Shown: positions 3,481 through 19,937 of the stretch, one piece after another
How positions within the stretch are numbered: the stretch's first letter is position 1
Layout: each line of letters starts with the position of its first letter
DNA from: Pseudomonadota bacterium
GTDB lineage: Bacteria > Pseudomonadota > Alphaproteobacteria > Acetobacterales > Acetobacteraceae
Assembly (NCBI GenBank): GCA_018240405.1
Contig: JAFEFW010000634.1
Location: 1-34,503 of the forward strand
Direction of reading: 5' to 3'
Length of the DNA: 34,503 nt
Translations under genes and position numbers: made by a program
The notes under the pieces: model-generated
What the model saw: only the letters and a program-made list of their open reading frames with translations
What the model was told of the DNA's origin: nothing
The model's database searches: none

Positions 3481-3519
3481 GCAAGCCGCTCGCCGGGCGG
3501 TTCTTGCGGCTTTGCCGCA
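3481..3519 (+). promoter_or_regulatory. overlapping hairpins upstream of carotenoid operon
   Basis: The 5' arm GCAAGCCGC (3481-3489) can pair with GCGG-tt-CTTGC (3497-3507). It can also pair, with one bulge, with GCGGCtTTGC (3506-3515). A separate small hairpin TGCGGC-ttt-GCCGCA occupies 3505-3519 and overlaps the first. The pairings compete for the same bases. They sit between the hydrolase stop and the DUF2141 start, so they may act as a terminator for the hydrolase or a leader element for the operon. No U-run follows, and function is inference. Confidence 0.3.
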
Positions 3520-3574
3520 TACCCCCAAGTCGGACCGAGAGACGAAACCCGGCTGGAGGAAGCGGTTAGCACGC

Positions 3575-4006
3575 ATGTTGCAGAAATGTTTGCCGCCCCT
3601 CCTGTTCCTGATGACCGTCGCGAGTGCGCAGGCTGCCGTCCTGCAGGTGTCGATCGCCGGCATCCGTAGCGATCAGGGCACGCTTTACATCTGCGTTTTC
3701 ACGGCGCCGGGAGCGTTTCCTGCCTGCAGCGACCAACCGGCGGCACGGTCGCGCCGGCTGAAGCCGGTTGCCGGCACCATCCGCACCACTTTTGACGACG
3801 TGCCGGCCGGCCCCTGCGCGATCTCGGTCATGCACGACGAGAACGACAACGGCAAGCTGGACACCAACCTCATCGGCATTCCGCGGGAGGGTGTCGGTGT
3901 CTCGATGAACCCGCCGCCGCGCCGTGGGCCGCCTCGCTTCGAGGACGCCGCTTTCACCCTGACGCCACAAGGCGGCACGGTGACGGTGAACATGGTGTAC
4001 CCATGA
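3575..4006 (+). CDS. DUF2141 secreted protein, first gene of carotenoid operon
   Basis: This encodes a 143-residue exported protein. The N-terminus (MLQKCLPPLLFLMTVASAQA) is a Sec signal peptide with likely cleavage after AQA, leaving a beta-rich domain of about 120 residues. Residues such as MHDENDNGKLDTN and the stretch IGIPREGVGVS match DUF2141 (PF09912), whose biochemical role is unknown. I chose the ATG at 3575 over the longer GTG frame from 3479 because it starts the signal peptide directly and has GGAGGA at 3555-3560. The stop overlaps the next start (ATGA at 4003-4006), so it is translationally coupled to the first desaturase. From memory, DUF2141 genes recur beside carotenoid genes in other bacteria. 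That suggests a periplasmic role linked to pigment, but this is inference. Confidence 0.85.
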   Translation: MLQKCLPPLLFLMTVASAQAAVLQVSIAGIRSDQGTLYICVFTAPGAFPACSDQPAARSRRLKPVAGTIRTTFDDVPAGPCAISVMHDENDNGKLDTNLIGIPREGVGVSMNPPPRRGPPRFEDAAFTLTPQGGTVTVNMVYP

Positions 4007-5544
4007 GCGGCCGCCGCAAGATTGTGATCATCGGCGCCGGACCGGGCGGGCTTGCGGCGGCGATGCTGCTGGCCCGCTTCGACGTGGATGTCACCGTGCT
4101 GGAGCGGCAGGATCATGTCGGTGGCCGAACGGCTTCGATCCATGAGAACGGCTTCACGTTCGATACGGGTCCGACGTTTTTTCTTTATCCGGAGGTGCTG
4201 CGCGAGATCTTCCATGTCTGTGGCCATGATCTCGACCGGGAGGTGGACCTGATCCGGCTTGATCCGCAGTATCGTCTGGAATTTGAGGACGGCAGCCGAC
4301 TGGACGCCACCCCGGACATTGCGGAGATGGAGGCGCAGATTGCCGCCATTGCCCCGCGCGACGCCCGGAATTTCCGCGCGTATATCGACGATAACCGGCG
4401 CAAGTTCATTGCCTTCCGTCCGGCATTCCGGCGGCCCTTCAATTCGGCGGCGGATTTTCTCGCGCCAGAGATCCGGCGGGCTGTACCGCTGCTGCGACCC
4501 TGGCGTTCGGTGGATCAGGAGCTGCGCCGTTACTTTGCCGATCCACGCATCCGCATCGCCTTTTCTTTCCAGTCCAAGTATCTTGGCATGTCGCCGTTCC
4601 GCTGCCCGAGCCTGTTCACCATCCTGGGGTTTCTGGAATACGAATACGGCGTGTTCCACCCGCGCGGCGGCTGCGGCGCCATCATGACAGCGATGGCGCG
4701 GGTTGCCGACCGCATGGGCGTCAGCATCCGCCTGAATGAGCCGGTGGAGGAAATCCTGGTGCGGGGCGGCAAGGCCGTTGGCGTCCGCACGCAACGCGGC
4801 ACATATCCGTCCGACGCCGTTGTGCTGAACGCCGATTTTGCGCAAGCCATGTCAACACTGGTGCCGGAAGCGGCGCGCCGGCGGTGGACCAATCGCCGCA
4901 TCAGCCAGGCAAAATATTCCTGTTCCACATTCATGATGTATCTGGGCGTGACCCGCCGCTATCCCGAGGTGCCACATCATACTATCTATCTGGCAAACGA
5001 TTACGCGCGGAACATTGCCGAGATCGAGGCAGGCCGGGTGCTGACCGAAAATCCTTCCTTCTATGTGCAGAACGCCTGCGTTACGGACCCGTCGCTGGCG
5101 CCCGCGGGCAGCAGTGCGCTCTACGTGCTGGTTCCGGTGCCGCACCGCAGCCCGCACATCGCATGGGATGATCTCTCCGCCTACCGCTCCCGGGTTCTGC
5201 GGCAGCTTGCCCGGGTCGGGATCACTGACGTTGAACCGAACATCCGCCTGGAGAAGATCGTGACACCGCAGGACTGGGAAACCCAGCACGCGCTGTATCG
5301 CGGCGCGACGTTCAGCCTGCGGCACTCGATCGACCAGATGCTGCACCGGCGCCCGCATAACCGGTTCGAGGATCTGGGCAGTGTCTATTTGGTCGGCGGC
5401 GGCACCCACCCCGGCAGCGGCCTGCCCGTCATTTTCCAATCCGCCCGCATTTCCACAGACCTGATGGAACAGGACCTGGCGCTGCAGCCGCGCCCGTTCC
5501 AGCGGGTCAGCAAGCCGGCATTGGCGGAGGTCGCGGCGCAATGA
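4003..5544 (+). CDS. crtN: CrtN-like FAD-dependent carotenoid desaturase
   Basis: This is a 513-residue member of the CrtI/CrtN phytoene/dehydrosqualene desaturase family. The N-terminal dinucleotide-binding motif IIGAGPGG (residues 9-16) is followed by an acidic strand end (VLE) and VGGRTAS. FDTGPTFFLYP and the C-terminal VGGGTHPGSGLP (FAD-binding end) are family signatures, and the length is normal. In C30 pathways the enzyme introduces conjugated double bonds into squalene or dehydrosqualene at the membrane. It overlaps DUF2141 by four bases upstream and the second paralogue by four bases downstream. Sequence reading alone cannot decide whether this or the next gene is the desaturase and which is the terminal-methyl oxidase. 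The symbol is assigned by order and family only. Confidence 0.8.
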   Translation: MSGRRKIVIIGAGPGGLAAAMLLARFDVDVTVLERQDHVGGRTASIHENGFTFDTGPTFFLYPEVLREIFHVCGHDLDREVDLIRLDPQYRLEFEDGSRLDATPDIAEMEAQIAAIAPRDARNFRAYIDDNRRKFIAFRPAFRRPFNSAADFLAPEIRRAVPLLRPWRSVDQELRRYFADPRIRIAFSFQSKYLGMSPFRCPSLFTILGFLEYEYGVFHPRGGCGAIMTAMARVADRMGVSIRLNEPVEEILVRGGKAVGVRTQRGTYPSDAVVLNADFAQAMSTLVPEAARRRWTNRRISQAKYSCSTFMMYLGVTRRYPEVPHHTIYLANDYARNIAEIEAGRVLTENPSFYVQNACVTDPSLAPAGSSALYVLVPVPHRSPHIAWDDLSAYRSRVLRQLARVGITDVEPNIRLEKIVTPQDWETQHALYRGATFSLRHSIDQMLHRRPHNRFEDLGSVYLVGGGTHPGSGLPVIFQSARISTDLMEQDLALQPRPFQRVSKPALAEVAAQ

Positions 5545-7070
5545 GCGGTCCCGTCGCTGTCATTGGCGGAGGGCTCGGCGGCCTGGCCGCCGCGGCCGTG
5601 CTGGCCGCCCGTGGCCACCGCGTGCGCCTGTTCGACAAGAATCCCTGGCTCGGCGGCAAGGCGGCGGTCCTGCGGCAGGACGGGTTTCGCTTCGATATGG
5701 GCCCGACCATCCTGACGGTACCGGCGGTGCTTCGCCGTATCTATGCCGAGGCGGGACGTGATGTCGCCCAGGAACTCGACCTGATCCGCCTCGATCCGCA
5801 ATGGCGCTGCTTCTTCGACGACGGCAGCGTGCTTGACCTGCAGGAGGACAAGGCGCGCATGGCCGAGACGCTGCGCGCCTATACCGGCGATGCCGGGGCC
5901 GCAGAGGGCTATGAGCGGTTCCTGGCACTGGCTGGGCGGCTGCATGGTATTTCGGAGAAGTTCTTCTTCTGGCGCGCCGTGGAAGACCTGCGGGACACGC
6001 TCGATCTTCGGCAGAACTTCAATCCGGCGACGCTGGCGGACGTGCTTGCCTTGCGCATGGGCACGACCGTCGCTGGAACGATCCGCCGCAAGGTGAAGGA
6101 CGCGCGGGTTGCGCAGATGCTCGACCATTTCACGCAGTATGTCGGTTCGTCGCCCTACGGGTCGCCGGCGGTGCTCTGCTCGATCGCGCATATGCAGACC
6201 GATGGCGGCGTCTGGTACCCGCGCGGCGGCACGCGTGCCGTGGCAGAAGGCTTGCTGTCACTCGGCGAATCGCTTGGCGTGCAGTACGAACCCGGCTGCG
6301 GCATCGCGCGGATCGAGTCATCGGACCGGGTGACCGCGGTCGTCACCGAGCACGGCGAGCGCATCCCGGTCTCCGCTGTCATTTCGAATATGGACAGTGT
6401 CCGCACGTATCGCGAGCTGGTGGGTGGTGCGGCCGCGGTGTCATTCGATCGCGCGCGGCGCTATGAGCCGGCGTGCTCCGGCGTGGTGCTGTACCTCGGC
6501 CTGAACCGGCGCTACGAACACCTGGCGCACCATGATTTCGTGTTTTCGCGCGACCCGAAAGAGGAGTTCGACGCGATCTACCGCCGCGGGGAGCCCGCGC
6601 CGGACCCGACCTGCTACCTGGCGGCGCCGGCCGCGACGGAACCGGCGGTGGCGCCGCCCGGCGGCGAGGCGCTGTATGTCCTGGTCCATACGCCGTATCT
6701 TCGGCCGGGCCAGGACTGGCGGCAGATGTTTCCGGCCTATCGCAGGGTGATCCTCGATAAGCTGATCCGCACCGCTGGGCTGCATGATCTGGACCAGCGC
6801 ATCGTGTTTGAGCAGGCCTTGACCCCGCAGGATATCCACGACCGCTACCACGTGCTGAACGGCGCGATCTACGGACTGGCCAGCCACGGCCGGTTCATGG
6901 GCGCGTTCAAGCCCGGCAACCGGAGCCGCCAGGTGCGCGGCCTGTACTTGGCCGGTGGCGCGGCGCATCCGGGGCCGGGCATGCCGATGGTCATGATGTC
7001 TGGCTGGATCGCCGCCGACGCGCTGGACCAGGATGCACGGTCGAACCAGCCAGAGCGCGCGCTGGCCTGA
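5541..7070 (+). CDS. second CrtI/CrtN-family oxidoreductase, probable CrtP-like diapocarotenoid oxidase
   Basis: This 509-residue paralogue of the preceding gene is coupled to it by ATGA. It has the FAD motif VIGGGLGG (residues 6-13), the shared FDMGPTILTVP segment, YVGSSPYGSP in the middle and a C-terminal AGGAAHPGPGMPMVMMSG. In C30 clusters with two such genes (CrtN plus CrtP/CrtNb), one copy desaturates the chain. The other oxidises a terminal methyl to an aldehyde, which an aldehyde dehydrogenase then converts to the acid. The aldehyde dehydrogenase four genes on supports the oxidase role for one of this pair. The family call is firm; the CrtP assignment is contextual inference, and a second desaturase is the alternative. 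Confidence 0.8.
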   Translation: MSGPVAVIGGGLGGLAAAAVLAARGHRVRLFDKNPWLGGKAAVLRQDGFRFDMGPTILTVPAVLRRIYAEAGRDVAQELDLIRLDPQWRCFFDDGSVLDLQEDKARMAETLRAYTGDAGAAEGYERFLALAGRLHGISEKFFFWRAVEDLRDTLDLRQNFNPATLADVLALRMGTTVAGTIRRKVKDARVAQMLDHFTQYVGSSPYGSPAVLCSIAHMQTDGGVWYPRGGTRAVAEGLLSLGESLGVQYEPGCGIARIESSDRVTAVVTEHGERIPVSAVISNMDSVRTYRELVGGAAAVSFDRARRYEPACSGVVLYLGLNRRYEHLAHHDFVFSRDPKEEFDAIYRRGEPAPDPTCYLAAPAATEPAVAPPGGEALYVLVHTPYLRPGQDWRQMFPAYRRVILDKLIRTAGLHDLDQRIVFEQALTPQDIHDRYHVLNGAIYGLASHGRFMGAFKPGNRSRQVRGLYLAGGAAHPGPGMPMVMMSGWIAADALDQDARSNQPERALA

Positions 7071-7072
7071 CC

Positions 7073-7867
7073 ATGCCGCGTGACGATGACGCCGCCGCCA
7101 TCCTGGCAGCCCGTTCCGACATCGTCACAGCCCTGATGACGGCAATGATGCGGCGTCAGGCTCGCCGGCGCTTCCATGCCGTCCGCCTCGCGCTGGGCAG
7201 CCGGCCGGCGGTGGACCCGGCCGCGGGGCTGATCGTGTATTCCAACCACCCATCCTGGTGGGATCCGGCAATGTTCGTGCTGCTCCAGTCACACGTGTTT
7301 CCGGGCCGGCGTGGCTATGGGCCGATGGAGGAGGAGGCGCTCACGCGGTATGCGGTTCTGCGGCGGATCGGGGTGTTTGGCCTGAATCCCGACAGCCGGC
7401 GCGGCGCGGCGCGATTCCTGCAGGTCGGGCGCCTTGTGCTGCAGACGCCCGATACATCGCTGTGGGTGACGGCCGAGGGCGCCTTCACCGATCCGCGCCG
7501 CCGGCCGCTGCGCCTGCGGCATGGGGTCGCGCACCTGCTTCACGGCCAGGATAATGTCGTCGCGCTGCCGCTGGCGATGGAATATCCGTTCTGGAATGAG
7601 AGCGCGCCGGAGGCCCTGCTACGCTTCGGTCCGCCCGTGGCGGCTGATCCCGGCCGTAGCGTCGCGGATTGGCAGACGACGCTGACGCAGGCACTGGAAG
7701 CCACCATGGATCGACTCGCCGAGGACGCGCTCGCGCGCGATCCGGCCCGCTTCGAGACACTGGTCAGCGGGCGCGTTGGGATTGGCGGTATCTACGACCT
7801 CTGGCGCCGCCGTTCGCTGCTGCGGGGGCAGCGGCCGCATCTGGCGCATGAGGAGCCGGGACGGTGA
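7073..7867 (+). CDS. PlsC-like acyltransferase, probable carotenoid glycoside acyltransferase
   Basis: This is a 264-residue lysophospholipid-acyltransferase-type protein. The catalytic HX4D motif is present as HPSWWD (His59, Asp64). A later AEGAFTDPR matches the family's EG-containing acceptor block. The segment YSNHPSWWDPAMF is characteristic. There is no clear transmembrane segment, so it is probably membrane-associated. The start is two bases after the previous stop, and the stop overlaps the glycosyltransferase GTG. In staphyloxanthin synthesis CrtO acylates the sugar of the carotenoid glycosyl ester. The position beside a glycosyltransferase suggests the equivalent role here, although it need not be orthologous to CrtO. 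A general phospholipid acyltransferase is the alternative. Confidence 0.78.
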   Translation: MPRDDDAAAILAARSDIVTALMTAMMRRQARRRFHAVRLALGSRPAVDPAAGLIVYSNHPSWWDPAMFVLLQSHVFPGRRGYGPMEEEALTRYAVLRRIGVFGLNPDSRRGAARFLQVGRLVLQTPDTSLWVTAEGAFTDPRRRPLRLRHGVAHLLHGQDNVVALPLAMEYPFWNESAPEALLRFGPPVAADPGRSVADWQTTLTQALEATMDRLAEDALARDPARFETLVSGRVGIGGIYDLWRRRSLLRGQRPHLAHEEPGR

Positions 7868-9087
7868 CCTGGCTGGCGATCTGGTGGTGGTTCGCAACGA
7901 TCCTGGCGCTGGTGCCGGCGGTGATGACGATGGTCAATCTGCGCCTGTTCCAGCCGCCGGGGTTCAGTCGCGCCCATGCTGCTGCCTCGTCACAGCCTGA
8001 GTTCTGGCGGGCTATGACGAGTGACACAGGTGCGCGCCGCGGCGTTGATACGTCCTCCCTGCAACCCCGCCTCGCCGTGTCCGTCATCGTGCCAGCGCGC
8101 AATGAGGCGGGTGGGATCGCCGCCTGCGTGAACGCCATTCTGGCCAGCGCTGGCGCCGATGTCGAAGTCCTGATCGTCGACGACCAGTCCACCGATGGCA
8201 CGGCTGCCATTGTCCGGGAGATCGCAGCGCGCGATCCGCGCGTGCGGCTGTTGTCGGCACCGCCCCTGCCCGCAGGTTGGTCGGGCAAGCAGCACGCGTG
8301 CTGGTACGGCGCGTCGCAGGCTTCGCGCCCGGTGCTGGTGTTTCTCGACGCCGACGTGGCTCTGGCGCCCGGGGCGGTCGCAGCCGTGGTGAACTTCCAG
8401 CACTCGTCAGGGGCATCACTGGTGTCCGGCTTTCCGCACGAGCGGACCGAGTCTCTGGGAGAAGTGCTGCTGATTCCGCTGATCCACGTCCTGCTACTGG
8501 GCTACCTGCCGATCGGGCGCATGCGGCAATCCTGCGACCCCAGTCTCGGCGCCGGATGCGGACAACTTATGGTGGCGGATGCCGAGGCGTACCGGCGAAC
8601 CGGCGGCCATGCGATGATCCGCGATTCCTGGCATGACGGCGTAACCCTGCCGCGCGCCTTCCGCCGCCGGGGCGAACGCACCGACCTGTTCGATGCGACG
8701 GCGCTGGCCGCATGCCGGATGTATCGCGGCTTCGGCGAAACCTGGCGCGGCCTGTCGAAGAACGCCCATGAGGGCATGGCAACGCCGGGCGCCCTGCCGG
8801 TCTGGACCGTGCTGCTGGGCGGCGGCCTGCTGGCGCCATTCGTTCTGCTGCCGATCGGCTGGGTGCTGGCGCCCGCGACCGTCCCGGTACTGGCGCTGAC
8901 GGTTGCCGCAATCGCGCTGGTCCTGTCCCGCCTGGCCCTCGCGATACGCGTCCGGCAATCGCTGCTCTCGGTCCCGCTGCTACCGGTCGGTGTAGCCGTA
9001 CTACTGGTGCTGCAATGGACGGCGCTGGTCGGGCGCCGGCGTCGCGCCTCAACGACCTGGCGCGGCCGCATCCAGGCCTCGGCATGA
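7864..9087 (+). CDS. family 2 glycosyltransferase, CrtQ/HpnB-like
   Basis: This is a 407-residue membrane glycosyltransferase with a GTG start inside the previous stop (GTGA). One N-terminal helix (residues 2-24) precedes a GT-A domain with VIVPARNE (74-81), VDDQSTDGT (105-113) and the metal-binding LDADV (161-165). Two or more hydrophobic helices follow between about 300 and 390. RGLSKNAHEGM and a closing WRGR are typical of the CrtQ/hopanoid-HpnB group. The likely role is to add a sugar to the carotenoid carboxylate. One oddity is a stretch of about 35 residues (34-70, bases about 7963-8070) between the first helix and the GT domain. It looks longer and compositionally less GC-rich than its surroundings. 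Confidence 0.82.
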   Translation: MTWLAIWWWFATILALVPAVMTMVNLRLFQPPGFSRAHAAASSQPEFWRAMTSDTGARRGVDTSSLQPRLAVSVIVPARNEAGGIAACVNAILASAGADVEVLIVDDQSTDGTAAIVREIAARDPRVRLLSAPPLPAGWSGKQHACWYGASQASRPVLVFLDADVALAPGAVAAVVNFQHSSGASLVSGFPHERTESLGEVLLIPLIHVLLLGYLPIGRMRQSCDPSLGAGCGQLMVADAEAYRRTGGHAMIRDSWHDGVTLPRAFRRRGERTDLFDATALAACRMYRGFGETWRGLSKNAHEGMATPGALPVWTVLLGGGLLAPFVLLPIGWVLAPATVPVLALTVAAIALVLSRLALAIRVRQSLLSVPLLPVGVAVLLVLQWTALVGRRRRASTTWRGRIQASA

Positions 9088-10424
9088 ACGGGCAGATGGA
9101 GCGGATGCGCGCGCCCCAGGCCGCCTGGGCCGATCGGCCGGTGCCGGAGCGGCTGGCGGTCATCGCCCGGCTCCGCCGGCTATGCGCCAGGGATCCGCAG
9201 GCGCTGGCGGCCACTGCCATGCGGCCAAACATGAATGAGGCGGATATTCTGGTGGCGGAGGTGATGCCGCTGCTCGCCGCCTGCCGCTTCCTGGAGCGCC
9301 AAGCACCGCGCCTGCTGGCGCCACGGCGGCCGGATGGACAACGCCCGATCTGGCTGGCGGGGGCACAGCTCCAGGTGCGCCGCCTGCCGCTTGGCATCGT
9401 GCTGATCATCGCGCCGCGCAACTATCCGCTGCTGCTGGCTGGGGTACAGGCGATCCAGGCGCTGACGGCGGGGAATGGCGTCGTGGTGAAGCCGGCGCCC
9501 GGGTTCGCCGCGCCGATGCAGGCCCTGGGGGATGCGCTGCTGCGCGCCGGCCTGCCAGACGGCCTGTTCGCCGTCCTGGCGGACACGCACGAAGCGGGCG
9601 AGCAGGCGCTGGCACTGGGCGCGGACAAGGTCGTGCTGACAGGTGGGGAGGCGACCGGACGGCGCGTGCTGGCGCGCCTGGCCGAGACGCTGACGCCGGC
9701 GACGCTGGAACTGTCCGGCGACGACGCCGTAATTGTCCTGCCGGGTGCACCGATCGAGACAATGGCCCGGGTCATCGCCCACGGCCTGCGGCTCAACGGC
9801 GGTGAGACCTGCATCGCACCGCGGCGGATCATTGCCGTCGGCGAGATCGTGGGGCCACTGGCCGGCGCCCTGGCGGACATACTGCCAACACTGCCGCCCT
9901 GCCATGTGCCGGCACCGGAGGCGGAGCGTATTGCCGATGCCGTTACCGCTGCCGAGGCGGCCGGCGCGGCAGTCATCGGTGGCCGGCCCGGCGAGACCAT
10001 GCAGCCGCTGGTGCTGCGGGCCGCGTCGCCAGAGCAAGCCCTGCCGCCGCTGTTCGGGCCCGCGGCGACGCTGATCACAGCGCCGGACGCTGAGACCGCC
10101 ATCACCATCGCCAACGCCAGCCGGTTCGCGCTCGGTGCATCGGTCTTTGGTCCGCCCCGTGAGGCCATGGACATGGCGCGGCGGCTGCGCGCCGGCAGCG
10201 TGACCGTCAACGACCTGATCGTCAGCACAGCCGACCCGCGGCTGCCGTTCGGCGGAACCGGCGCCAGCGGCTTCGGCGTCACCCGCGGCGCCGAGGGGCT
10301 GCTGGACATGACCCGGCCGCAGGCGATCGTCAGCCGCCGCCGCATCCTGGCGGCGCCGTTCCGGGTCATTCCACCCGGCGCGGCACGCTGGATCGCCCGA
10401 GGGCTGCGGCTGCTGTATGGGTGA
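9084..10424 (+). CDS. aldehyde dehydrogenase, probable diapocarotenal dehydrogenase
   Basis: This 446-residue protein is of the NAD(P)-dependent aldehyde dehydrogenase family. The N-part has APRNYPLLL and VVKPAP. LTGGEATGRRV is the cofactor loop, Glu209 lies in LELSGDD and the catalytic Cys243 in NGGETCIAPRR. PFGGTGASGFG closes the domain. The ATG at 9084 overlaps the glycosyltransferase stop (ATGA), so I prefer it to the ATG at 9015, which would overlap by 73 bases. The C-terminus (RWIARGLRLLYG) may be a short membrane-associating helix. It likely converts the diapocarotenoid aldehyde to the carboxylic acid that is then glycosylated, like AldH in Staphylococcus and Ald in Methylomonas. The role rests on context. 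Confidence 0.85.
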   Translation: MNGQMERMRAPQAAWADRPVPERLAVIARLRRLCARDPQALAATAMRPNMNEADILVAEVMPLLAACRFLERQAPRLLAPRRPDGQRPIWLAGAQLQVRRLPLGIVLIIAPRNYPLLLAGVQAIQALTAGNGVVVKPAPGFAAPMQALGDALLRAGLPDGLFAVLADTHEAGEQALALGADKVVLTGGEATGRRVLARLAETLTPATLELSGDDAVIVLPGAPIETMARVIAHGLRLNGGETCIAPRRIIAVGEIVGPLAGALADILPTLPPCHVPAPEAERIADAVTAAEAAGAAVIGGRPGETMQPLVLRAASPEQALPPLFGPAATLITAPDAETAITIANASRFALGASVFGPPREAMDMARRLRAGSVTVNDLIVSTADPRLPFGGTGASGFGVTRGAEGLLDMTRPQAIVSRRRILAAPFRVIPPGAARWIARGLRLLYG

Positions 10425-10457: not shown

Positions 10458-13400
10458 TTAGGTGTGCGTCACGCGAACATGGCCGGTGCCGTCGTCGCTG
10501 AGCTGGAAGACCCCGGGGCCGCTGACGGTTGCATTATCGAACCGCAAGGTAGCCAGCGTGGCACCGCTGGTCAGTTGCATCAGCCCGGTCGCGGCGGTGT
10601 AGGTCTGGACCGCGCCGGCGAAATTCAGGTCCTTGAGATCGACCGCATCGCCAACGCCGAAGTTCTGCAGCAGCGGCCCGGTGTAGGACGCCTGCCCCAC
10701 ATTGGTGCCGAAACTGGCCACGGCGTCGACGATCAGCCGGCTGGTGCTGCCGATGAAGCTCATGCGGTTGGCGTTACCGGTATCCGCCGCCACCTCCAGC
10801 ACCGCGGCGTTGTTCAGGATGAAGATGCCTGAACTGGCGGCCGCGACCGACCCTGTCACGGTCAACGTGTCGCTGGCGCCGATCGAGACGGTGCCGTTGT
10901 TGATTACCGAGGCTGCCGTGTTCGTGGAGCCGTTCAGATTCAACGACGCGGCCGCGTCCGTCTGCAGGATTCCGGTGCCGGTAACAGCGCCGCTGGCTGC
11001 CAACGTGCCGCCATTGGCCTGGATCTTCCCCGCATTGGCGATGGCGTTGCTGACCGTGCCAAAGCCCAGCAGCACACCGGTGGCCGCGACGGTGCCGGCT
11101 GTCGCCTGCAGCGTACCACCGCTCAGTCGCAGTGTGCCGTTCGCCTGTGCCGAGGCCGCGGTGTTCGTCGCCCCCTTCAGGAACAGCGTGCCGCCCACAT
11201 CCGCCCGCAGTGTTCCGGCACCGGAGACGGCGCTGTTGACGTTCAGGACGCCGCCGTTTGCTGCCACCGTTCCGGCATTGGCAATCGGGCCGGTGATCGT
11301 GCCGAAGCCGGAGAGAACAGCGCCGGCTGTCGCAACCGAAAGCGAAGTTGCCTGCAAGGCGCCGCCGCCCAGCTTGACGGTTCCATTGTCGATGACAGAG
11401 CCCGCACTGTTGCTGCCGCCTGACAGCACCAGGGTGGACGCCGCGTCGGCGATCAACGAACCGGTGCCACTGATGTTGCCGTTGACGGTCAGCGTGCCTG
11501 GTTTGGCGTTGATGGTGCCAGCGTTGGTAACCGGCGTAACCACCGTGCCGAAGCCGAACAGCGATGCCCCTGCGGCGATCGTCAGTCCGGCGGCCTGCAG
11601 TGTGCCGCCACCGAGCTGGATAATGCCGTTATCGTCGATGGTGAGGCCGCTGATGTAGTTGCGACCGCCGAGCACCTGCAATTGTCCACCAACAGCAACG
11701 CTCGTCAGAGTCTGCTCGATGTCGGTGTAGGGCGTAGCCCCCAGTCCGGTCCCCGCCCGCAACACCGAGCCAGCGCCTTGCAAGACAATTGTCGCCGCGT
11801 CGACGGCCAGCGGGCCTCCTGTCAGCAACATGGTCGCGCCGTTGGCGCCGGCGATCACCCGCCAGGTGCCGCCTGACAGGACGCCCTCCGCCAGGTTGGT
11901 GTTGATGGCGTCGTAGCGGTAGGTCAACGAACTGCCGTCGCCCACGGCCATGATACCGCTGTTGGTGTAGATGCCGTTTGCCAGCAGCAGGCCACCGGTG
12001 CCGGTCGCGCTCATGGTCGCGCCGGGCCCGTTGACGCCGCTGGCGCTGGCGCCGAGGTTGAACACCAGGGCGTTGGTGCCTGTCGCGATGATGGACCCGC
12101 TGGTGTTGACGAAGCCGAATCCGCCACCGGTGCCGAAGAGCCCGGCGCCGCTGATCGTGTTACCCTGGTTGATCAGCAGGCTGCCGTAGATCCGGTTGTT
12201 GGCGTTGTCGGACAGCAGCAACCGGCCAGTACCCGTCAGCGTGGCGCCGCCTCCGGCTGCAATCAGGTCCGCATAGCTGCCGGACAGGCTGAATGCGCTC
12301 TGCAGGATTGTGCCGGCATTGGCGATGGCGCCAACCAGTTGCAGCTTGCTGGTTTCATTGATGCGGATCGTGCCGGTGTTGGTGATGGCACCAACTGTTA
12401 GTCCATCCAACGTACTGGTGCTGTTCAAGCCGGTCTGGATAATGCCGCCGGTGAGGGTCGTTACAATCCCGCCCTCGATCGTTGCACCAACGAGATCCAC
12501 GTGCGCCAGCGTCCCGACGGCTCGGATCGTGCCGCCGGTGTTGTTAATCGTCGTATTGACGAGCACCAGGCCGCCATTGGCAGCGACAGTGGATGTCGCC
12601 TCCATCCGACCGGCATTGGTCATGATGTTGGCACCGAAATTCACCACAAGGGCGGTCTTCTGATTGGCGTTGATGACGCCTGCTGCCTGGTTCGTCATGA
12701 ACATCGTCGCGCCGACGCCGAGCGCCCCGCTTCCGGCGATGGTGTTGTTAACGTTGACGAACTGGTTCTTGGCGTTGCTGCCGTAGATCTGGTTGTTGGC
12801 GTTGTTCGACATCAGGATGCTGCCGCCGCCTTGCAGAACCACGTTCTGCCCGTCGATGCGCAGGTCAGTCTTGCCCACCGAACCCACAGCCGATGCTACT
12901 ATCGTCGCCGCATTGTTGATCGTGCCGGCAAGACGCAGCATCTGGGCGTTGTTGATCTGGATCGTGCCAAGGTTGCTGATCGCGCCGACCGTCAAACCGT
13001 CGAGCGTGCTAGCACGATCGATGACGTTGATGACGCCGCCCAGGGCCGTGCTTAACACGCCGCCTTCAATGGTAGCGGTCGCGAGGTCGACATGGCTGCC
13101 GGCCCCTGTTGCGAGGATGGTACCGCCGGCGTTGTTGATTGGTGTGTTGTAGATCAGGAGACCGCCGGTGTTGGTGCTCTCCATCAGGCCAAGATTGGTC
13201 GCCAGCCGGCCGTTTGTCCCAACAGCAAGAGCGGTCGCCTGATTGGCGTTGATGAGCCCGGTCGCCTGGTTGATCAGCGTCAGCGCCAAGTTGGCGCCGA
13301 GCTGGCCAGCACCGGCAATCGTGTTGTTGACATTGACCAGCTGGATCGTGCTGTCGGTGGCGTAGATCCGGTTCAGGCTGTTATTGGACATCAACACCTG

Positions 13401-15479
13401 GCCGCCGCCCTGCAGCACCACATTTTGCGCCACCAGGCGCAAATCCGTTGCACCGCCAATACTTTGCTGATCGAGCAGGATCGAGCCGACATTGTTGATC
13501 GTCCCGGCCAGGTCGAGCCGGGTCTGGTCGTTCACCAGCACGGTGCCGAGATTCAGGATCGGCCCGTTGGTGATTCCGTCCAGCACGGCGTTGCTGACAA
13601 CCTGGATCACACCGCCGCCGGTGGTCACCAGGGTCCCGCTCAGGATCCAGGCCGTATCAAGATCAACATGCGTATCGGCGCCGAAGGCCGCGATGGTGCC
13701 GCCGGCATTGCCGATCGTGGTATTGTAAAGCCGCAGGCCACCCGTTGCGGTCGCCATCATCGTCCCGGCGTTAGTCATCAGGTTGCTGGCGGTGTTGACC
13801 ACCAGCTGGCCGGTTCCGAAATAAGTCGCGTCCTGGTCGGCCTTGATCACGCCGGCCGCCTGGTTGATGAGGGTCATCTGACCCGACCCAAGCGCACCGG
13901 CGCCGGAAATGATGTTGTTGACGTTGATCAGTGTATTGCTGGCGCTTTGTCCGTAGACTTGGTTGCTGTCGCTATTTGACATTACCAGCCGGCCGCCACC
14001 TTGCAGTGTCACGATCTGGCTCGCCAGCCGCAGCCGGGCAGCGCCGGCAAGACTGATCTGATTCAGCAGGATCGTTCCAAGGTTGTTGATGATGCCTGAG
14101 ACGAACAGGTTAGTCTGGTCGCTGATCTGCATCGTGCCGTTGTTGGTGATGGCACCGGCGGCGAGCCCATCCAGCGTGGCGTCGCCGGTTGTCCGGATGA
14201 AGCCCTTCAGCGAGCCGCCCTGGATCGCCGAAGCGGACAGATCGACATGCGCACCGGCAACAAGCGCCTGGATGGTTCCGCCAGCGTTGTTGATGGTCGT
14301 GCTTTGCACCGCAAGGCCGCCAGTCCCGGTACTCTGCAGCGTGCCGGTATTGGTCACGACGTTGCCGTTGGTATTCAGCACCAGTGCCGTTGTCTGGTTC
14401 GCGTCGACCAGGCCGGCATTACTGAATGTCATCTGGCCCGAACCCAACTGGCCGGCGCCGATGATCTTGTTGTTGACGTTGACCAACTGATAGTTGCTGC
14501 TGTTGCCGAAGATGCGGTTGTTGGCATTGTTTGACATCGCAATCGTACCGCCAGTACGGAGGGTGACGATTGCGCTGTTGAGACGCAGGTCGGTGAACCC
14601 GCCCGTGGACTTCAGGGCGATGGTGCCGTTGTTGTTGATGCCGCCGAGCAGCGTCAGGGACTGGGCGTCATTGACCTGCAGGGCGGTGCTGAGGGTGACC
14701 GGGTGAAGGCCGAGCCCGTCAAGGGCCGCGGTGTTGCCAATCGCCTGGACGACGCCACCGGTACTTGCGGTAACCGTGCCACCGATGACGCTGGCCTGCA
14801 GGTTGACCACGGAGCCGGCACCGACCGCGGTTATCACGCCGCCAATGTTGGTCATTGCGCTTTGCAGGTATAGCGTGCCGCCCAAGGTGGCCTGCATGGT
14901 GCCGGCGTTGGTGAGGGCGTTGCCACCGGTGTTCACCGTCAGCGCCTTGCCGAGGACATTCGCGTTGACGATGCCGCCGGCCTCGTTGGTCAGGGACATC
15001 AGCCCGACGCCAAGCAATCCCGTGCCGCTGATCGTGTTGCTCACGTTGTCAAGCAGGTATGAGCCGTTGTTGGCGTAGATACGGGTATAGGTATCATTGG
15101 ACAGTACGATCCGGCCGCCGCCGGTCAGGACGGTATTCTTCGACAGACGGAGGTCGGTATTGGTGTTGCCGGTCGATGTCGGTGCGATGAGCCCGGCGTT
15201 GGCGATCGTCCCACCCAGGAACAGGTTCGCGTTGCTGTAGGCGATCGTGCCGGTTGCCGCGATGCCGCCGGCGCCCGTGCCGTCGGTGATGGTAAAATTG
15301 GTGGCCGAGATGTTGAGGCTGGAACCGGCGCCCAGGTCGAGCAGCTTCACGGTGTTCACCACAGAGGCAACGACCGAGAACCCCGCGCCGATCACTGCGT
15401 AATCTGTTGCGGTCGGCACGCCGACCGGGCTCCAGTTCGAAACCGTGTTGAAGCTGTTGCCGAAGCCGCCGATCCAGGT
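10458..15479 (-). repeat. module B of giant protein: second copy of the same architecture
   Basis: The same motif falls near 15075, 14506, 13951, 13361, 12781 and 12181. Each is 4430-4452 bases from its counterpart in module A. The header TWIGGFGNSF...NWSP restarts at about 15479. Repeat 3 of both modules carries an extra GTGQL/SSGQL-type segment. Repeat 5 of both carries an extra V-x-x-NGGLV segment, so the repeats correspond in order. Confidence 0.85.
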
Positions 15480-18400
15480 CTTGTTGACCGGCGGAAAGCC
15501 GCCACCGCCGCCACCGCCAGGCGGTGTGGGGAGGGTGCCGCTGCCGGCGACGGCGGCGCCGGCCGTCAGTGTCAGCTTGGTGCCGCCGGCACCATCGGCC
15601 GCGGCGACAAACTTGTTCACCGCCGGGTTGATGCCAGGGCCGGCAACCGCGTAGACGAGGTCGGGATGGCCCGTGTAGCTGACGATCACCTTGTCGGCGG
15701 CCATCGACACGCCGGTCACCGACGCCGGCGCGATGTCGGCCAGGTCGATCACGTCGCCCAGCGCAAGTCCGGTAATGGTGCCATAGAAATTGGTTGCGAT
15801 GTCGAGCTTGAGCGTGCCCACCGCACCCGTGGTGAAGTTGACGACTTCGCTGACGATGCCACCCAGTTCCAGCGTTGAGGCATTGTCGATCAGCAGTGAT
15901 CCGGTGCCGGTGATATTGCCGGTAACAGTCAAAAGGCCGCCCTGAGCCTGGATCTTACCGTTATTGATCGGCGCCTCATCGACCACGCCTGTGCCAGCGA
16001 GCACGCCGGTGGCGCCCAATGTGAGCGTACCGACCTGGAAGGTCCCGCCGGCAAGCTGGATCAGACCCGTATCGAGCAGGTCAAGGCTGCTGGTGTAGCC
16101 GCGATTTCCCTGCACCCGAAGCTGGCCGCCGGCGACGACACTCCGCAGGCTCGACTCCAGGTTTGTGTACGGCGTACCGCCGGAGCCGGTTCCCGCTCGG
16201 ATGATGGAGTTGGCCCCTGACAAGATGAGAATTGCCTGGTTGTTGACGATCGGGCCACCGGTCATCGACAGCGTCGCACCGGCCCCGCTGGAGAATGCGC
16301 GCCAGATACCACCGATCAGGTCACCCTCGGCCAGGTTGGTGTTGATCACGCCGGCCTGGTAGGTCAGGGCGCTGCCGTTGTTCACGGTCATGACGCCATT
16401 GTTGGTGATGATGCCGGAGCTGATGATCATGCCGCCGGAGCCATTGGCGTTCATGAAGGCTCCGGCCGCGTTGACCCCGGTGCCGCCGTTGAGGCCGATC
16501 ACCAGGGCGTTCGTGCCGGTCGCCTGGATCGTGCCTGCCGCATTCACGAAGTTCATCGTGTTGGCGCCGAACTGGCCTGCGCCGCTGATGACGTTGCCCT
16601 GGTTGACCAGCGTATAGTTACTGCTGGCGCCGTAAATCCTGTTCGTTGCGTTGTCGCTGAGCTGAAGCTGGCCGGCGCCTGAGAGCGTCGTGGTCCAGCC
16701 GATCAGCCTTATATCGGTATTGCCGCTGACGCTGGTGGCATTGCTCCGGATGGTGCCGGAATTGACGATCGAGCCGACGAGGTCGAGCCTGGTATGGTCA
16801 TTGACGACGACGACCCCGGTATTGAGGAGCGGCGTGCTGGTCAAGCCGTCGAGAGCAGCGTTGCCGATCGTCGCAATGATGCCGCCGCCGCTGGTGGCCA
16901 GCGTGCCACCCTCGATATAGGCGCCGTCGAGATTGACATGTGCCTGTGCGCCGGCGGCCAGGATCGTGCCGCCGGCATTGTTCAGCGTCATGTTCTGAAT
17001 GACCAGGCCGCCATTCCCCACCACCGCCGATGTCGACTCCATCAGCCCGGAGTTGGTCGCAATGTATGCGCCGGTATTGACGATCAGCGCGTTGCTCTGG
17101 TTGGCGTTGATGACCCCGTTGGCCTGATTGATCAGCGTGAGACCGCCGACTCCGAGCTGACCAGCACCGGAAATCACGTTGTTCACGTTGATCAGATCGT
17201 AATAGCCGCTTGACCCATATATCCGGTTGTTCGCCACATCAGACAGCACGACCTGACCGCCGCCTTGCAGTACGGCGGTCTGCCCGCTGACAATCAGGTT
17301 CGCATTGGCCCCAACCGACGCGAGGGCAATCGTCCCCGTGTTGTTGATCGTGCCAACGAGCTTGAGGGACGTGGCGTTTTGGACCTGCACGACGCCCTGA
17401 TTGGTCAGCACGCCTGATGTGATACCGTCCAGCACGCTGCTGGCATCGGTCGACCGGATCACCGCCCCCACGCCGGAGGTCGTCAACGTCCCACCCTCGA
17501 CCCAGGCACTGCTGAGATCGACATGGGCGCCGGCGCCAAGGGCCTGGATAGTACCGCCGGCGTTGTCGATCACGCTGCTGGAGAGCACCAGGCCGCCGGT
17601 ACCGGTTGCCTGCATAATCCCGGCATTGCGCAGGACGTTGCCACCGGTATTGATGACGAGGGCCGTTGTTTGATCGGCAACAATCCGGCCAAGTGCCTGA
17701 TTCACGAGCGATAATGAATTGACGCCGATCTGGCCGGCGCCGGAGATGACGTTGTTGACGTTGACCAGCTGCACGTTGCTGTTGGCGCCGTAGATGCGGT
17801 TGCTGCCGTTGTTCGACATCACTACTTTGCCGAAGCCATTACCCTGCAGCACCACCTGCTGCGAGGTGATCTGCAGGTTGGTGGTCCCCGTCGCACCCAG
17901 CTGGTTCAGCAGTATCGTGCCTGCGTTATTGATCGTTCCCGCAACGTCCAGGCGTGACTGGCTGGTTACGTTGACCTGGCCGACGATCGAAAGCGCACCG
18001 TTATTGATCCCGTCCAACGCTGCATTGTTTGTGGTCGTCGCAATACCCGCTCCGGCACTGGCAACCAACTGACCGCCTTGAACGGTGCTGTTATCAAGGT
18101 AGACCGTCGAACCGGCGTTGATCGCTTTAATTCCTCCCGTGTTCTTGACGATCGTGTTTTGGATCATCAAGCCGCCGGTATTGGTTGCCTGCATGATACC
18201 AGCGTTCGTCAGGATGCTGTTGGTGGTGTTGACCAGCAACTGGCCGGAACTGCCCTGACTGGCTGCAGCATCAGCCGAAATAAGCCCGCCCGCTTGGTTG
18301 ACCAGGGTCATCTGGCCGAAGCCAAGCTGCCCGGAACCGGAAATCGTGTTGTTGAGGTTGATCAGCGTATAATAGCCGCTGTTGCCATAGATCCGGTTGT

Positions 18401-19937
18401 TGAAGTTATTCGACATCACCAGCTTACCGCCGCCAGACAGAGTAACGGTCTGGCTGGCAAGGCGAATACTTGAATATCCGGTATTACTTACCTGATTTGC
18501 ATACAATGTCCCCTGATTGGCGATCACGCCGCTGAGGTACAGGCTACGCTGGTCACTGACCACCACAGTCGCTCGGTTTAATATCGAACCGAATGTAAGC
18601 CCGTCGAGGCCGCCGTCCCCACTGGCAACATTGACCACAGCGCCGGGGCCGGAAATCAGGTTGCCGCCCATGATCGAGCCACCGCCCAAATCGACATGCG
18701 CGCCGGCGCCGATCGCCTGGACCGTGCCGCCGACGTTCTTGACGGCGCTTTGGATCAACAGCCCGCCCGTGCCTGTCGCTTGCAGTGTGCCGGTATTGAT
18801 AACTGTGTTATTGCCGGTGTTCAGAACCAGTGCATTGGCCAGATTGGCAGTCACCGTACTGTTGTTGGTGAACGACAGGCTGCCCCCGCCCAGCTGGCCG
18901 GCACCATCGATGGTGTTGGTCTTGTTGACGAGCTGGAAGCCCGCGTTGATCGTGGAAAGGATCCGGTTGTTCGGATTGTCGCCGAGATGAACGGCGCCGG
19001 TGCCCTGCAGCGTCACGATGGGACTGGCGATGCGCAGGTCTGTGCTGTTCCCCGTCGAGACGGGGTTCAGGACGCCGTTGTTGATGATGGTACCGAGCAG
19101 ACTGAGCGCCTGCGCGTTCAACACCTGAATCGTGCCGTTGATCGTGACAGTGTGCAGGGGCAGACTGTCCAATGTAGCGCTGACGCTGGTGGCCTGGACG
19201 ACGCCACCGGTATTGGTGGTGATCAGGCCGCCCGAAACGACACCCTGCAGTGCCACCACCGAGTTGGCGCCGGTGGACAGGATCGTGCCACCCACATTGT
19301 TCATGTTGCTGGCGATGACCAGTTTGCCGCCGGCGGTCGCCTCCATGGTGCCGGTATTACGGATAAGGTTGCTGCCGGTATTGACCGTCAGAGCCGCGGC
19401 TGCCTGGTTGCCATTGATAATGCCGGCGTTGGACAAGGTCATCTGGCCGGCACCGAGTGCGCCCGCACCGCTGATGGTGTTGTTGACGTTCTCCAGCGTG
19501 TAGCTCGCCTGGGAGCCGTAGATCTGGTTGCTCGCGTTGGCGGACATCTGGATCTGCCCGCCGCCCTGCAACCTGGTCAGCCCCTGGGTCAGGATGATCC
19601 TTGTGTTTGAGCCGGCGGAATTCTCCTGGATCGTGCCGCTGTTCACGATCGTGCCGCCAAGCTGCAATGTGGCGTTGTCGCTGATTTTCAACAAACCAGC
19701 GATGCCGCCGCCGTAGGTGCCGTTGGCAATGCCAAAGGTCGTCGCGGCGCCGATACTCAGGGTGGCCGTCGCAGTAATGGAGAAACTGTTGACCGTGGCG
19801 CTGGCCGTCGTGTCGACCGACGCGGCCCCGACGTTGATGACGGCATCGTCCGCCACGCCAGGAACAACTTGCGGAGACCAGTTCTGAGCGTCGTTGAAAT
19901 GCGTGCTGAATCCGCCGATCCAGTTGATCAGGGCCAT
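10458..19937 (-). CDS. giant 3159-residue beta-helix-like repeat protein
   Basis: This is a single uninterrupted frame. The composition is Gly/Ala/Asn/Thr/Val/Leu/Ile-rich, I find no cysteine, and Lys is very scarce. This is typical of surface or secreted beta-helix proteins. There is no Sec signal peptide and no C-terminal autotransporter barrel. The C-terminus (GDAVDLKDLNFAGAV, then an F-x-L-S-D-D-G-T-G-x-V pattern) resembles the terminal domains of proteins thought to leave by type I secretion. Two modules run in tandem. Each has a WIGGF...NWSP header (Trp6 and Trp1488), six ~190-residue repeats with an NNRIYG-like motif and an ISGAGQLG-like motif, a NTNLAEG cap, and a GDVIDL-type terminal domain. 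A Gly7/Pro linker joins them near residue 1475. A GGGGGA ribosome site precedes the ATG. No transporter genes are nearby; adhesin or biofilm matrix protein is inference. Confidence 0.85.
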   Translation of the reverse strand: MALINWIGGFSTHFNDAQNWSPQVVPGVADDAVINVGAASVDTTASATVNSFSITATATLSIGAATTFGIANGTYGGGIAGLLKISDNATLQLGGTIVNSGTIQENSAGSNTRIILTQGLTRLQGGGQIQMSANASNQIYGSQASYTLENVNNTISGAGALGAGQMTLSNAGIINGNQAAAALTVNTGSNLIRNTGTMEATAGGKLVIASNMNNVGGTILSTGANSVVALQGVVSGGLITTNTGGVVQATSVSATLDSLPLHTVTINGTIQVLNAQALSLLGTIINNGVLNPVSTGNSTDLRIASPIVTLQGTGAVHLGDNPNNRILSTINAGFQLVNKTNTIDGAGQLGGGSLSFTNNSTVTANLANALVLNTGNNTVINTGTLQATGTGGLLIQSAVKNVGGTVQAIGAGAHVDLGGGSIMGGNLISGPGAVVNVASGDGGLDGLTFGSILNRATVVVSDQRSLYLSGVIANQGTLYANQVSNTGYSSIRLASQTVTLSGGGKLVMSNNFNNRIYGNSGYYTLINLNNTISGSGQLGFGQMTLVNQAGGLISADAAASQGSSGQLLVNTTNSILTNAGIMQATNTGGLMIQNTIVKNTGGIKAINAGSTVYLDNSTVQGGQLVASAGAGIATTTNNAALDGINNGALSIVGQVNVTSQSRLDVAGTINNAGTILLNQLGATGTTNLQITSQQVVLQGNGFGKVVMSNNGSNRIYGANSNVQLVNVNNVISGAGQIGVNSLSLVNQALGRIVADQTTALVINTGGNVLRNAGIMQATGTGGLVLSSSVIDNAGGTIQALGAGAHVDLSSAWVEGGTLTTSGVGAVIRSTDASSVLDGITSGVLTNQGVVQVQNATSLKLVGTINNTGTIALASVGANANLIVSGQTAVLQGGGQVVLSDVANNRIYGSSGYYDLINVNNVISGAGQLGVGGLTLINQANGVINANQSNALIVNTGAYIATNSGLMESTSAVVGNGGLVIQNMTLNNAGGTILAAGAQAHVNLDGAYIEGGTLATSGGGIIATIGNAALDGLTSTPLLNTGVVVVNDHTRLDLVGSIVNSGTIRSNATSVSGNTDIRLIGWTTTLSGAGQLQLSDNATNRIYGASSNYTLVNQGNVISGAGQFGANTMNFVNAAGTIQATGTNALVIGLNGGTGVNAAGAFMNANGSGGMIISSGIITNNGVMTVNNGSALTYQAGVINTNLAEGDLIGGIWRAFSSGAGATLSMTGGPIVNNQAILILSGANSIIRAGTGSGGTPYTNLESSLRSVVAGGQLRVQGNRGYTSSLDLLDTGLIQLAGGTFQVGTLTLGATGVLAGTGVVDEAPINNGKIQAQGGLLTVTGNITGTGSLLIDNASTLELGGIVSEVVNFTTGAVGTLKLDIATNFYGTITGLALGDVIDLADIAPASVTGVSMAADKVIVSYTGHPDLVYAVAGPGINPAVNKFVAAADGAGGTKLTLTAGAAVAGSGTLPTPPGGGGGGGFPPVNKTWIGGFGNSFNTVSNWSPVGVPTATDYAVIGAGFSVVASVVNTVKLLDLGAGSSLNISATNFTITDGTGAGGIAATGTIAYSNANLFLGGTIANAGLIAPTSTGNTNTDLRLSKNTVLTGGGRIVLSNDTYTRIYANNGSYLLDNVSNTISGTGLLGVGLMSLTNEAGGIVNANVLGKALTVNTGGNALTNAGTMQATLGGTLYLQSAMTNIGGVITAVGAGSVVNLQASVIGGTVTASTGGVVQAIGNTAALDGLGLHPVTLSTALQVNDAQSLTLLGGINNNGTIALKSTGGFTDLRLNSAIVTLRTGGTIAMSNNANNRIFGNSSNYQLVNVNNKIIGAGQLGSGQMTFSNAGLVDANQTTALVLNTNGNVVTNTGTLQSTGTGGLAVQSTTINNAGGTIQALVAGAHVDLSASAIQGGSLKGFIRTTGDATLDGLAAGAITNNGTMQISDQTNLFVSGIINNLGTILLNQISLAGAARLRLASQIVTLQGGGRLVMSNSDSNQVYGQSASNTLINVNNIISGAGALGSGQMTLINQAAGVIKADQDATYFGTGQLVVNTASNLMTNAGTMMATATGGLRLYNTTIGNAGGTIAAFGADTHVDLDTAWILSGTLVTTGGGVIQVVSNAVLDGITNGPILNLGTVLVNDQTRLDLAGTINNVGSILLDQQSIGGATDLRLVAQNVVLQGGGQVLMSNNSLNRIYATDSTIQLVNVNNTIAGAGQLGANLALTLINQATGLINANQATALAVGTNGRLATNLGLMESTNTGGLLIYNTPINNAGGTILATGAGSHVDLATATIEGGVLSTALGGVINVIDRASTLDGLTVGAISNLGTIQINNAQMLRLAGTINNAATIVASAVGSVGKTDLRIDGQNVVLQGGGSILMSNNANNQIYGSNAKNQFVNVNNTIAGSGALGVGATMFMTNQAAGVINANQKTALVVNFGANIMTNAGRMEATSTVAANGGLVLVNTTINNTGGTIRAVGTLAHVDLVGATIEGGIVTTLTGGIIQTGLNSTSTLDGLTVGAITNTGTIRINETSKLQLVGAIANAGTILQSAFSLSGSYADLIAAGGGATLTGTGRLLLSDNANNRIYGSLLINQGNTISGAGLFGTGGGFGFVNTSGSIIATGTNALVFNLGASASGVNGPGATMSATGTGGLLLANGIYTNSGIMAVGDGSSLTYRYDAINTNLAEGVLSGGTWRVIAGANGATMLLTGGPLAVDAATIVLQGAGSVLRAGTGLGATPYTDIEQTLTSVAVGGQLQVLGGRNYISGLTIDDNGIIQLGGGTLQAAGLTIAAGASLFGFGTVVTPVTNAGTINAKPGTLTVNGNISGTGSLIADAASTLVLSGGSNSAGSVIDNGTVKLGGGALQATSLSVATAGAVLSGFGTITGPIANAGTVAANGGVLNVNSAVSGAGTLRADVGGTLFLKGATNTAASAQANGTLRLSGGTLQATAGTVAATGVLLGFGTVSNAIANAGKIQANGGTLAASGAVTGTGILQTDAAASLNLNGSTNTAASVINNGTVSIGASDTLTVTGSVAAASSGIFILNNAAVLEVAADTGNANRMSFIGSTSRLIVDAVASFGTNVGQASYTGPLLQNFGVGDAVDLKDLNFAGAVQTYTAATGLMQLTSGATLATLRFDNATVSGPGVFQLSDDGTGHVRVTHT
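10850..11565 (-). repeat. three 81-82-aa tail repeats in module B
   Basis: Units beginning LFGFGT, LSGFGT and LLGFGT are spaced 246 and 243 bases (marker positions about 11548, 11302 and 11059). Each contains a TNAGTI/ANAGTV/ANAGKI strand, a TLTVNG-like strand and an N-T/S-A-A/G-S segment. Module A has only one such unit. Confidence 0.75.
15480..19937 (-). repeat. module A of giant protein: header plus six ~190-aa repeats
   Basis: The NNRIYG-like motif falls near 19520, 18958, 18386, 17791, 17216 and 16631, a spacing of 562-595 bases. The module ends with a cap (NTNLAEG), one unit of the shorter tail repeat, a GDVIDLADI terminal domain and the linker at about 15490-15560 that encodes PTPPGGGGGGGFPP. 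Confidence 0.85.

What the first reader, a model, noticed from the sequence alone, without database searches (positions are those of the whole stretch)
10458..19937. Giant repeat protein is a register-preserving tandem duplication of a six-repeat module
The NNRIYG-like motif recurs every 555-600 bases, six times per half. Each position in the second half lies 4430-4452 bases from its partner in the first half (for example 16631/12181, 18386/13951, 19520/15075). Repeat-specific insertions match between halves (repeat 3: GTGQL-like segment; repeat 5: NGGLV segment), as do the WIGGF headers (Trp6 and Trp1488). The simplest reading is duplication of a whole ancestral ~1480-residue protein after its six repeats had diverged.
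Basis: seen in the sequence. Interest (0 to 1): 0.7.

Follow-up and report, generated by a model that had tools for sequence, protein, structure and literature searches.

The report
Fused whole-gene duplication, giant exported protein
One very large bacterial protein is two head-to-tail copies of a complete ancestral six-repeat protein joined by a short glycine-rich linker, probably copied before this bacterium split from a relative; it is likely a surface or matrix protein, and the duplication is clear but not a new kind of event.

Summary
ORF 10458-19937 (-) encodes 3159 aa. Its halves (aa 6-1469 and 1488-2950) align end to end at 51.7% identity. In-register pairing is the best of 120 pairings of repeats 1-5 with 7-11. 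Repeats clustering by half is rejected (p-AU 5e-47). From the window alone only pairs 1-7 and 6-12 are firm. Adding the same-genus homologue G033, which has the same 12-repeat layout on two contigs, plus outgroups gives six clades, {1,7} to {6,12}; smaller samples leave {4,10} open. The duplication most likely predates the split of the two genomes, with later local exchange (for example repeats 1 and 7 in G033).

Single-unit relatives exist: three with six repeats, one with five. The junction keeps a domain homologous to the C-terminal domain of a single-unit relative, so whole proteins were fused. One MAG carries two tandem unfused copies. The second half has its own tail: three ~81-aa units instead of one, and a diverged C-terminal domain.

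Function is inferred: an extracellular solenoid adhesin or matrix protein, probably type I secreted. Block duplication of repeats is a known process.

The parts
10458..19937 (-). Giant repeat protein, 3159 aa, no cysteine; stop codon included
15510..19937 (-). Half 1 (aa 1-1476)
10461..15509 (-). Half 2 (aa 1477-3159)
19533..19937 (-). Header 1 (WIGGF, aa 1-135), includes a partial repeat
18972..19532 (-). Repeat 1
18402..18971 (-). Repeat 2
17805..18401 (-). Repeat 3, with the 5-aa insertion shared with repeat 9
17232..17804 (-). Repeat 4
16647..17231 (-). Repeat 5, with the 4-aa insertion shared with repeat 11
16104..16646 (-). Repeat 6 (part repeat plus cap)
15813..16055 (-). Single tail unit of half 1 (overlaps the start of the junction domain by a few residues)
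15540..15830 (-). Junction domain, homologous to the C-terminal domain of the L092 ORFs
15477..15539 (-). Glycine/proline-rich linker between the fused copies
15090..15476 (-). Header 2 (WIGGF, Trp1488)
14523..15089 (-). Repeat 7 (partner of 1)
13968..14522 (-). Repeat 8 (partner of 2)
13377..13967 (-). Repeat 9 (partner of 3)
12798..13376 (-). Repeat 10 (partner of 4)
   Evidence: weak
12201..12797 (-). Repeat 11 (partner of 5)
11667..12200 (-). Repeat 12 (partner of 6)
10884..11615 (-). Three tail units of about 81 aa (54-55% identical to each other; half 1 has one)
10461..10880 (-). Actual C-terminal domain, diverged from the junction domain

Best explanation
An ancestral exported protein of about 1450-1500 residues (N-terminal WxGG header, five full ~190-aa repeats, a sixth capping repeat, a short tail unit and a C-terminal export-type domain) was duplicated in tandem after its repeats had already diverged. 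The two complete copies became one reading frame joined by a glycine/proline-rich linker. Shown: the register, the pair clades, the same layout in a second genome of the genus, single-unit relatives, and an ancestral-type C-terminal domain kept at the junction. Inferred: the route was tandem gene duplication followed by loss of the stop between the copies; the doubled protein is a long beta-solenoid outside the cell, an adhesin or matrix protein; it leaves by a type I secretion system through its C-terminal region, because it has no room for a signal peptide, no cysteine, and no recognisable autotransporter barrel, Hint or PEP-CTERM domain. Fusion would double the reach or the number of binding faces per exported chain. 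I put the duplication at about 0.93 and the extracellular solenoid adhesin/matrix role with type I export at about 0.55.
For: Halves align 6-1469 / 1488-2950 at 51.7% identity. In-register pairing is best of 120. Half-clustering rejected. Six quartet clades with G033 and outgroups. Diagnostic insertions in both genomes. G033 has the same 12 repeats over two contigs, offsets 1482-1484 aa for the three pairs on one contig. A window-specific duplication is disfavoured (p-AU 0.025 and 0.021). Relatives with six repeats: G141/L094, L092 second ORF, L091; G106 has five. The junction domain matches the C-terminal domain of the L092 ORFs (hhalign probability 97.1, E 5.9e-11). L092 holds two tandem unfused ORFs, 68% identical in register over the part held. 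Function: eight open codons and then a TGA upstream of the ATG; no Cys; one place over the TIGR01842 cut-off in the genome, with 0 of 14 control genomes over it; two AlphaFold2 models are almost wholly beta (pLDDT 61.5 and 82.1), and the best Foldseek matches include beta-helix adhesins such as antigen 43, pertactin and Fap2, none significant.
Against: From the window alone, pairs 4-10 and 5-11 are not resolved. 41 of 142 windows match best out of register. Quartet {4,10} is 58/54 with 37 repeats and not recovered with 24 (p-AU 0.351), where {2,8} has only 60/16. Repeats 1 and 7 of G033 group with each other (98/81), and repeats 3, 4 and 6 do not pair across genomes there, against a plain pre-split duplication; I read the former as gene conversion. 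The two C-terminal domains of the window protein are only weakly alike (probability 2.7, E 0.017). The caps of the L092 and L091 proteins do not group with those of the window, G033, G141 and G106, so a six-repeat count may not be inherited unchanged. For function: Foldseek has 0 matches at E<=0.001 for either model, and its best list also holds PL6 lyases and others; AlphaFold2 is reported to over-predict beta-solenoids for perfect repeats (PMC11795689, abstract and outline seen); none of the 14 window neighbours scanned (ORFs right of 29911 not scanned) is an exporter, and no Pfam or NCBIfam export model hits the C-terminal 400 aa.
Confidence: 0.8

Rival explanations
1. Stepwise growth: single repeats were added one by one and the similarity between halves is convergence or chance order.
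For: Repeats 4, 5, 8, 9, 10 and 11 are almost equally alike, and other lineages show within-protein repeat expansion (G106 r1-r4, Terriglobia, Methylococcaceae).
Against: Second header and junction domain in the middle; diagnostic insertions in register; half-clustering rejected; six quartet clades.
Confidence: 0.03
2. A variant of the best explanation, not exclusive of it: fusion of two already diverged paralogous genes, old tandem neighbours with different tails, rather than a fresh in-frame duplication.
For: The tails of the halves differ: one against three tail units, and two weakly similar C-terminal domains, the latter also in G033. L092 has two separate tandem genes.
Against: Part of the tail difference may have arisen later: from the start of repeat 12, G033 has 418 aa and the window 580 aa. 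The L092 pair is its own duplication (caps pair 100/100).
Confidence: 0.4
3. Independent doubling in the window genome and in G033, or strong concerted evolution that hides the true order.
For: G033 repeats 1 and 7 pair with each other. G033 partner repeats are 55-74% identical against 54-66% between genomes.
Against: R10, R11, R5 and R12 pair across genomes (99/93, 99/94, 94/82, 94/84). Second halves pair across genomes (88/90 and 96/97), and holding the two window halves together costs 15.6 and 19.1 log-likelihood units (p-AU 0.025 and 0.021).
Confidence: 0.07

Closest known systems
Multi-domain internal duplication of repeat proteins (nebulin seven-domain blocks; PMC1553488, passages seen)
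   Same: A block of several already diverged repeats was copied as a unit.
   Different: Here the whole protein, header and C-terminal domain included, was copied and fused, in a bacterium.
Large repeat proteins of Rhodospirillales with a Hint_2 domain (L056, L058, L061)
   Same: Same ~190-aa repeat type by profile match; the tail unit weakly matches two Hint_2-bearing frames, on C40 and C30, of the own genome (E 3.7e-6 and 3.2e-5).
   Different: The window protein has no Hint_2 domain.
PEP-CTERM versions of the same repeat array (L091, L053, L060)
   Same: Same repeats; L091 has six.
   Different: They end in a PEP-CTERM motif (over the NCBIfam cut-off in 3 of 3; over Pfam's in L091 only); L091 opens with a signal-peptide-like stretch (by eye). 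The window protein has neither.
Antigen 43, pertactin, Fap2 and other autotransporter beta-helices
   Same: Beta-rich models; among the best though insignificant fold matches.
   Different: No barrel domain found, and no PDB sequence match.

Membership tests
Block (multi-repeat) tandem duplication | Repeat n pairs with repeat n+k rather than with its neighbours | tested here: met
   weakest for 4-10
Whole-protein duplication and fusion | Both ends of the ancestral protein present at the junction | tested here: met
   Junction domain like the C-terminal domain of the L092 ORFs, then header 2
Type I secreted exoproteins | No N-terminal signal peptide | tested here: met
   Eight codons then a TGA upstream of the ATG; start reads MALINWIGG; no signal predictor was run
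Type I secreted exoproteins | C-terminal export signal or RTX nonapeptides | tested here: inconclusive
   No RTX or T1SS model hit; an export signal cannot be shown from sequence here
Type I secreted exoproteins | Type I exporter in the genome | tested here: met
   1 of 116 places over the TIGR01842 cut-off, on another contig
Autotransporters / two-partner exoproteins | C-terminal barrel or N-terminal TPS domain | tested here: not met
   No such Pfam match for the whole protein, its C-terminal 400 aa or five pieces of the rest
Hint_2 exoproteins | PF13403 domain | tested here: not met
   one search lists no place on contig C593
PEP-CTERM proteins | C-terminal PEP-CTERM motif | tested here: not met
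Beta-solenoid | Solved or well-matched solenoid fold | tested here: inconclusive
   Models almost wholly beta, pLDDT 82.1 and 61.5; 0 Foldseek matches at E<=0.001

The most novel reading that the evidence does not exclude
A bacterial exoprotein that doubled its length by fusing two complete copies, keeping an internal copy of the ancestral export/terminal domain as a joint, so that one chain carries two full sets of six position-specific repeats that have since diverged under constraint and exchange sequence only locally.
Probability: 0.45. Interest if true: 0.45.

Novelty: new variant of a known kind. Interest (0 to 1): 0.33.

Why it matters
It is a clean, testable example of repeat-protein growth by whole-protein duplication and fusion in bacteria. 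Single-copy relatives, a tandem unfused pair and a second fused genome are all at hand, so the steps can be ordered. The same repeats occur with PEP-CTERM, Hint_2 or neither, which suggests the repeat array is the functional cargo and the export end is exchangeable.

Tried and rejected
Family searches of the whole protein gave nothing: Pfam at E<=1, NCBIfam at 0.01, PHROGs at 1, PDB sequences at 1. Five pieces (aa 1-500, 501-1097, 1098-1616, 1477-2187, 2188-2757) also gave nothing at 0.01 in Pfam and NCBIfam. The C-terminal 400 aa gave PF11765 Hyphal_reg_CWP (26.9 bits, cut-off 28, E 2.8e-6), which one search had not shown, so alone is not strong evidence of absence; I read the hit as a shared pattern, not kinship. 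Synteny: none of the 14 window neighbour proteins tested matched (tblastn, 1e-8) the DNA held from seven loci of relatives, including both G033 contigs, so no shared neighbourhood was found. Ten open frames beside homologues showed no exporter at Pfam 1e-5. Nei-Gojobori dS between partner repeats is 0.78-1.44 in the window, too high for dating. A first self-BLAST listed only the full diagonal. Alignment A2 of overlapping triple repeats was mis-registered and not used. Literature: 'beta strand repeat-containing protein' with 'adhesin' and 'type I secretion', 0 papers; alone, 4 papers, none of which by title or start of abstract concerns this; other listings. Two papers were opened: PMC1553488 (passages) and PMC11795689 (abstract and outline).

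Full report
Observation. The ORF at 10458-19937 on the minus strand encodes 3159 residues, with no cysteine and nine tryptophans. Anchors of the NNRIYG-like motif fall at twelve places, six per half, 185-199 aa apart, with partner offsets of 1476-1483 aa. A local alignment of the halves runs from residue 6 to 1469 against 1488 to 2950, with 1434 aligned columns, 51.7% identity and a score of 3316 against at most 456 in 20 shuffles. The pairing 1-7, 2-8, 3-9, 4-10, 5-11 scores highest of 120 permutations. Against this, 41 of 142 sliding windows of 60 residues match better out of register, many of them in repeats 4 and 5, at the header's end and in the tail.

Repeat trees. The window-only tree firmly supports 1-7 and 6-12, and less firmly 2-8 and 3-9; 4-10 and 5-11 are open or weak. 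Holding repeats 1-6 together as a clade is rejected (p-AU 5.2e-47). Three wider samples were tried. With 58 repeats (window, G033, G141, G106, G131, L091, L092, L093) there are six quartet clades: {1,7} 99/94, {2,8} 99/96, {3,9} 100/96, {4,10} 92/79, {5,11} 92/77 and {6,12} 99/83. With 37 repeats the quartets are {1,7} 94/66, {2,8} 91/88, {3,9} 99/96, {4,10} 58/54, {5,11} 89/90 and {6,12} 96/90. With only the 24 repeats of the two genomes, {4,10} is not recovered (p-AU 0.351) and {2,8} is weak (60/16). Insertions give independent support: five residues in 3/9 and four in 5/11, in all four copies of each quartet and nowhere else among the 20 full repeats of the two genomes. G141 has a similar four-residue insertion in its third repeat.

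Age. All 34 held genomes of the genus were searched with aa 1477-2579; 4 have a match: the window genome, G033, G011 and G004. The doubled layout, with a second header, was seen in the window genome and G033. G011's frames are cut by contig ends or end in PEP-CTERM, and G004's short frames were not examined, so a doubled gene there is not excluded. G033 carries repeats 1-9 and the start of 10 on one contig and 10-12 on another. In trees of whole halves the second halves pair across genomes (88/90 and 96/97), and holding the two window halves together is disfavoured (p-AU 0.025 for the R7-R9 part, 0.021 for the R10-R12 part). So the duplication most likely predates the split. At repeat level the picture is mixed: R5, R10, R11 and R12 pair across genomes with good support (94/82 to 99/94), R2, R8 and R9 with mixed support (91/47, 95/45, 100/77), and R3, R4 and R6 do not pair; G033 R1 and R7 pair with each other (98/81; 74% identical), which I read as gene conversion.

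Ancestral unit. Among relatives whose array could be read from header to cap, G141 (L052 and L094), the second ORF of L092 (Caulobacteraceae MAG) and L091 (Methylococcaceae MAG) have six repeats, and G106 has five. L093 (Terriglobia) has seven full repeats and a weak eighth in a frame open at the contig end. The others matched by the repeat profile give other counts: G035 five, G165 five, G204 (C42) four, G249 three, G262 ten to twelve, and cut frames in G011, G131 and G189; L096-L100 have two to eight weaker matches. Across lineages the inner repeats group mostly by protein, so they turn over within proteins. The cap of the window and G033 groups with G141 r6 and G106 r5 (99/93 and 100/99), but the caps of L092 and L091 do not join them. 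In the relatives sample 10 of 60 genomes have a match, in the family sample 43 of 398, in the class sample 5 of 385, the window genome counted in each.

Junction. The domain at residues 1370-1466 matches the C-terminal domain of the L092 ORFs (probability 97.1, E 5.9e-11) and is followed by a glycine/proline-rich linker and a second header. The true C-terminal domain also resembles the L092 domain (probability 86.5, E 4.6e-6), but the two domains of the window protein are only weakly alike (probability 2.7, E 0.017). The second half has three tail units of about 81 aa, 54-55% identical, where the first has one. L092 shows two tandem, unfused genes on one strand, the first cut by the contig end, 68% identical over the overlap; this is a separate duplication but shows the kind of intermediate expected.

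Function (inferred). The start codon is followed almost at once by the header, and eight codons upstream of it stands a TGA, so a signal peptide is unlikely. No barrel, TPS, Hint_2 or PEP-CTERM domain was found. The genome has one PrtD-type ABC transporter over the curated cut-off and 22 Hint_2 places. Related arrays carry PEP-CTERM (L091, L053, L060) or Hint_2 (L056, L058, L061) ends, so the array looks like an extracellular cargo with exchangeable ends. AlphaFold2 on shallow window-only alignments (three and two rows) gives almost wholly beta models (pLDDT 61.5 for aa 1098-1616; 82.1 for aa 1-711). Foldseek's best matches include beta-helix adhesins, autotransporters, PL6 lyases and, lower down, the S-layer protein RsaA, with no E-value at or below 0.001. 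AlphaFold2 is reported to over-predict such solenoids for perfect repeats (PMC11795689, abstract), although these repeats are diverged. My reading, at about 0.55, is an exported adhesin or matrix solenoid.

Known context. Expansion of repeats by several domains at a time is established (PMC1553488, passages). What is specific here is the fusion of two complete copies with both ends kept. I rate it a new variant of a known kind with modest interest.

Noticed in passing
2386-10424 (+): Run of genes on the opposite strand: alpha/beta-hydrolase-like, DUF2141, two CrtI-family desaturases (over the TIGR02734 cut-off), acyltransferase-like (just under its cut-off), HpnB/CruG-like glycosyltransferase (under cut-offs), aldehyde dehydrogenase. 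From memory this resembles a glycosylated, acylated carotenoid-acid (C30-type) pathway; not tested.
   Followed up: partly
own genome, 22 places: 22 Hint_2 (PF13403) places, 10 of them in open frames of 1000-3550 aa: the genome is rich in large Hint_2 proteins.
   Followed up: no
L092:1-6645: Two tandem unfused genes of this repeat type (the first cut by the contig end, the second with six repeats), 68% identical in register: a separate duplication.
   Followed up: partly
L048, repeats 1 and 7: In G033 repeats 1 and 7 are closer to each other than to their counterparts in the window (74% identical): probable gene conversion.
   Followed up: partly
L053, L060, L091 vs L056, L058, L061: The same repeat array is found with PEP-CTERM or with Hint_2 ends.
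   Followed up: partly
27620-29911 (+): ORF of 763 aa with a C-terminal SOUL heme-binding domain.
   Followed up: no
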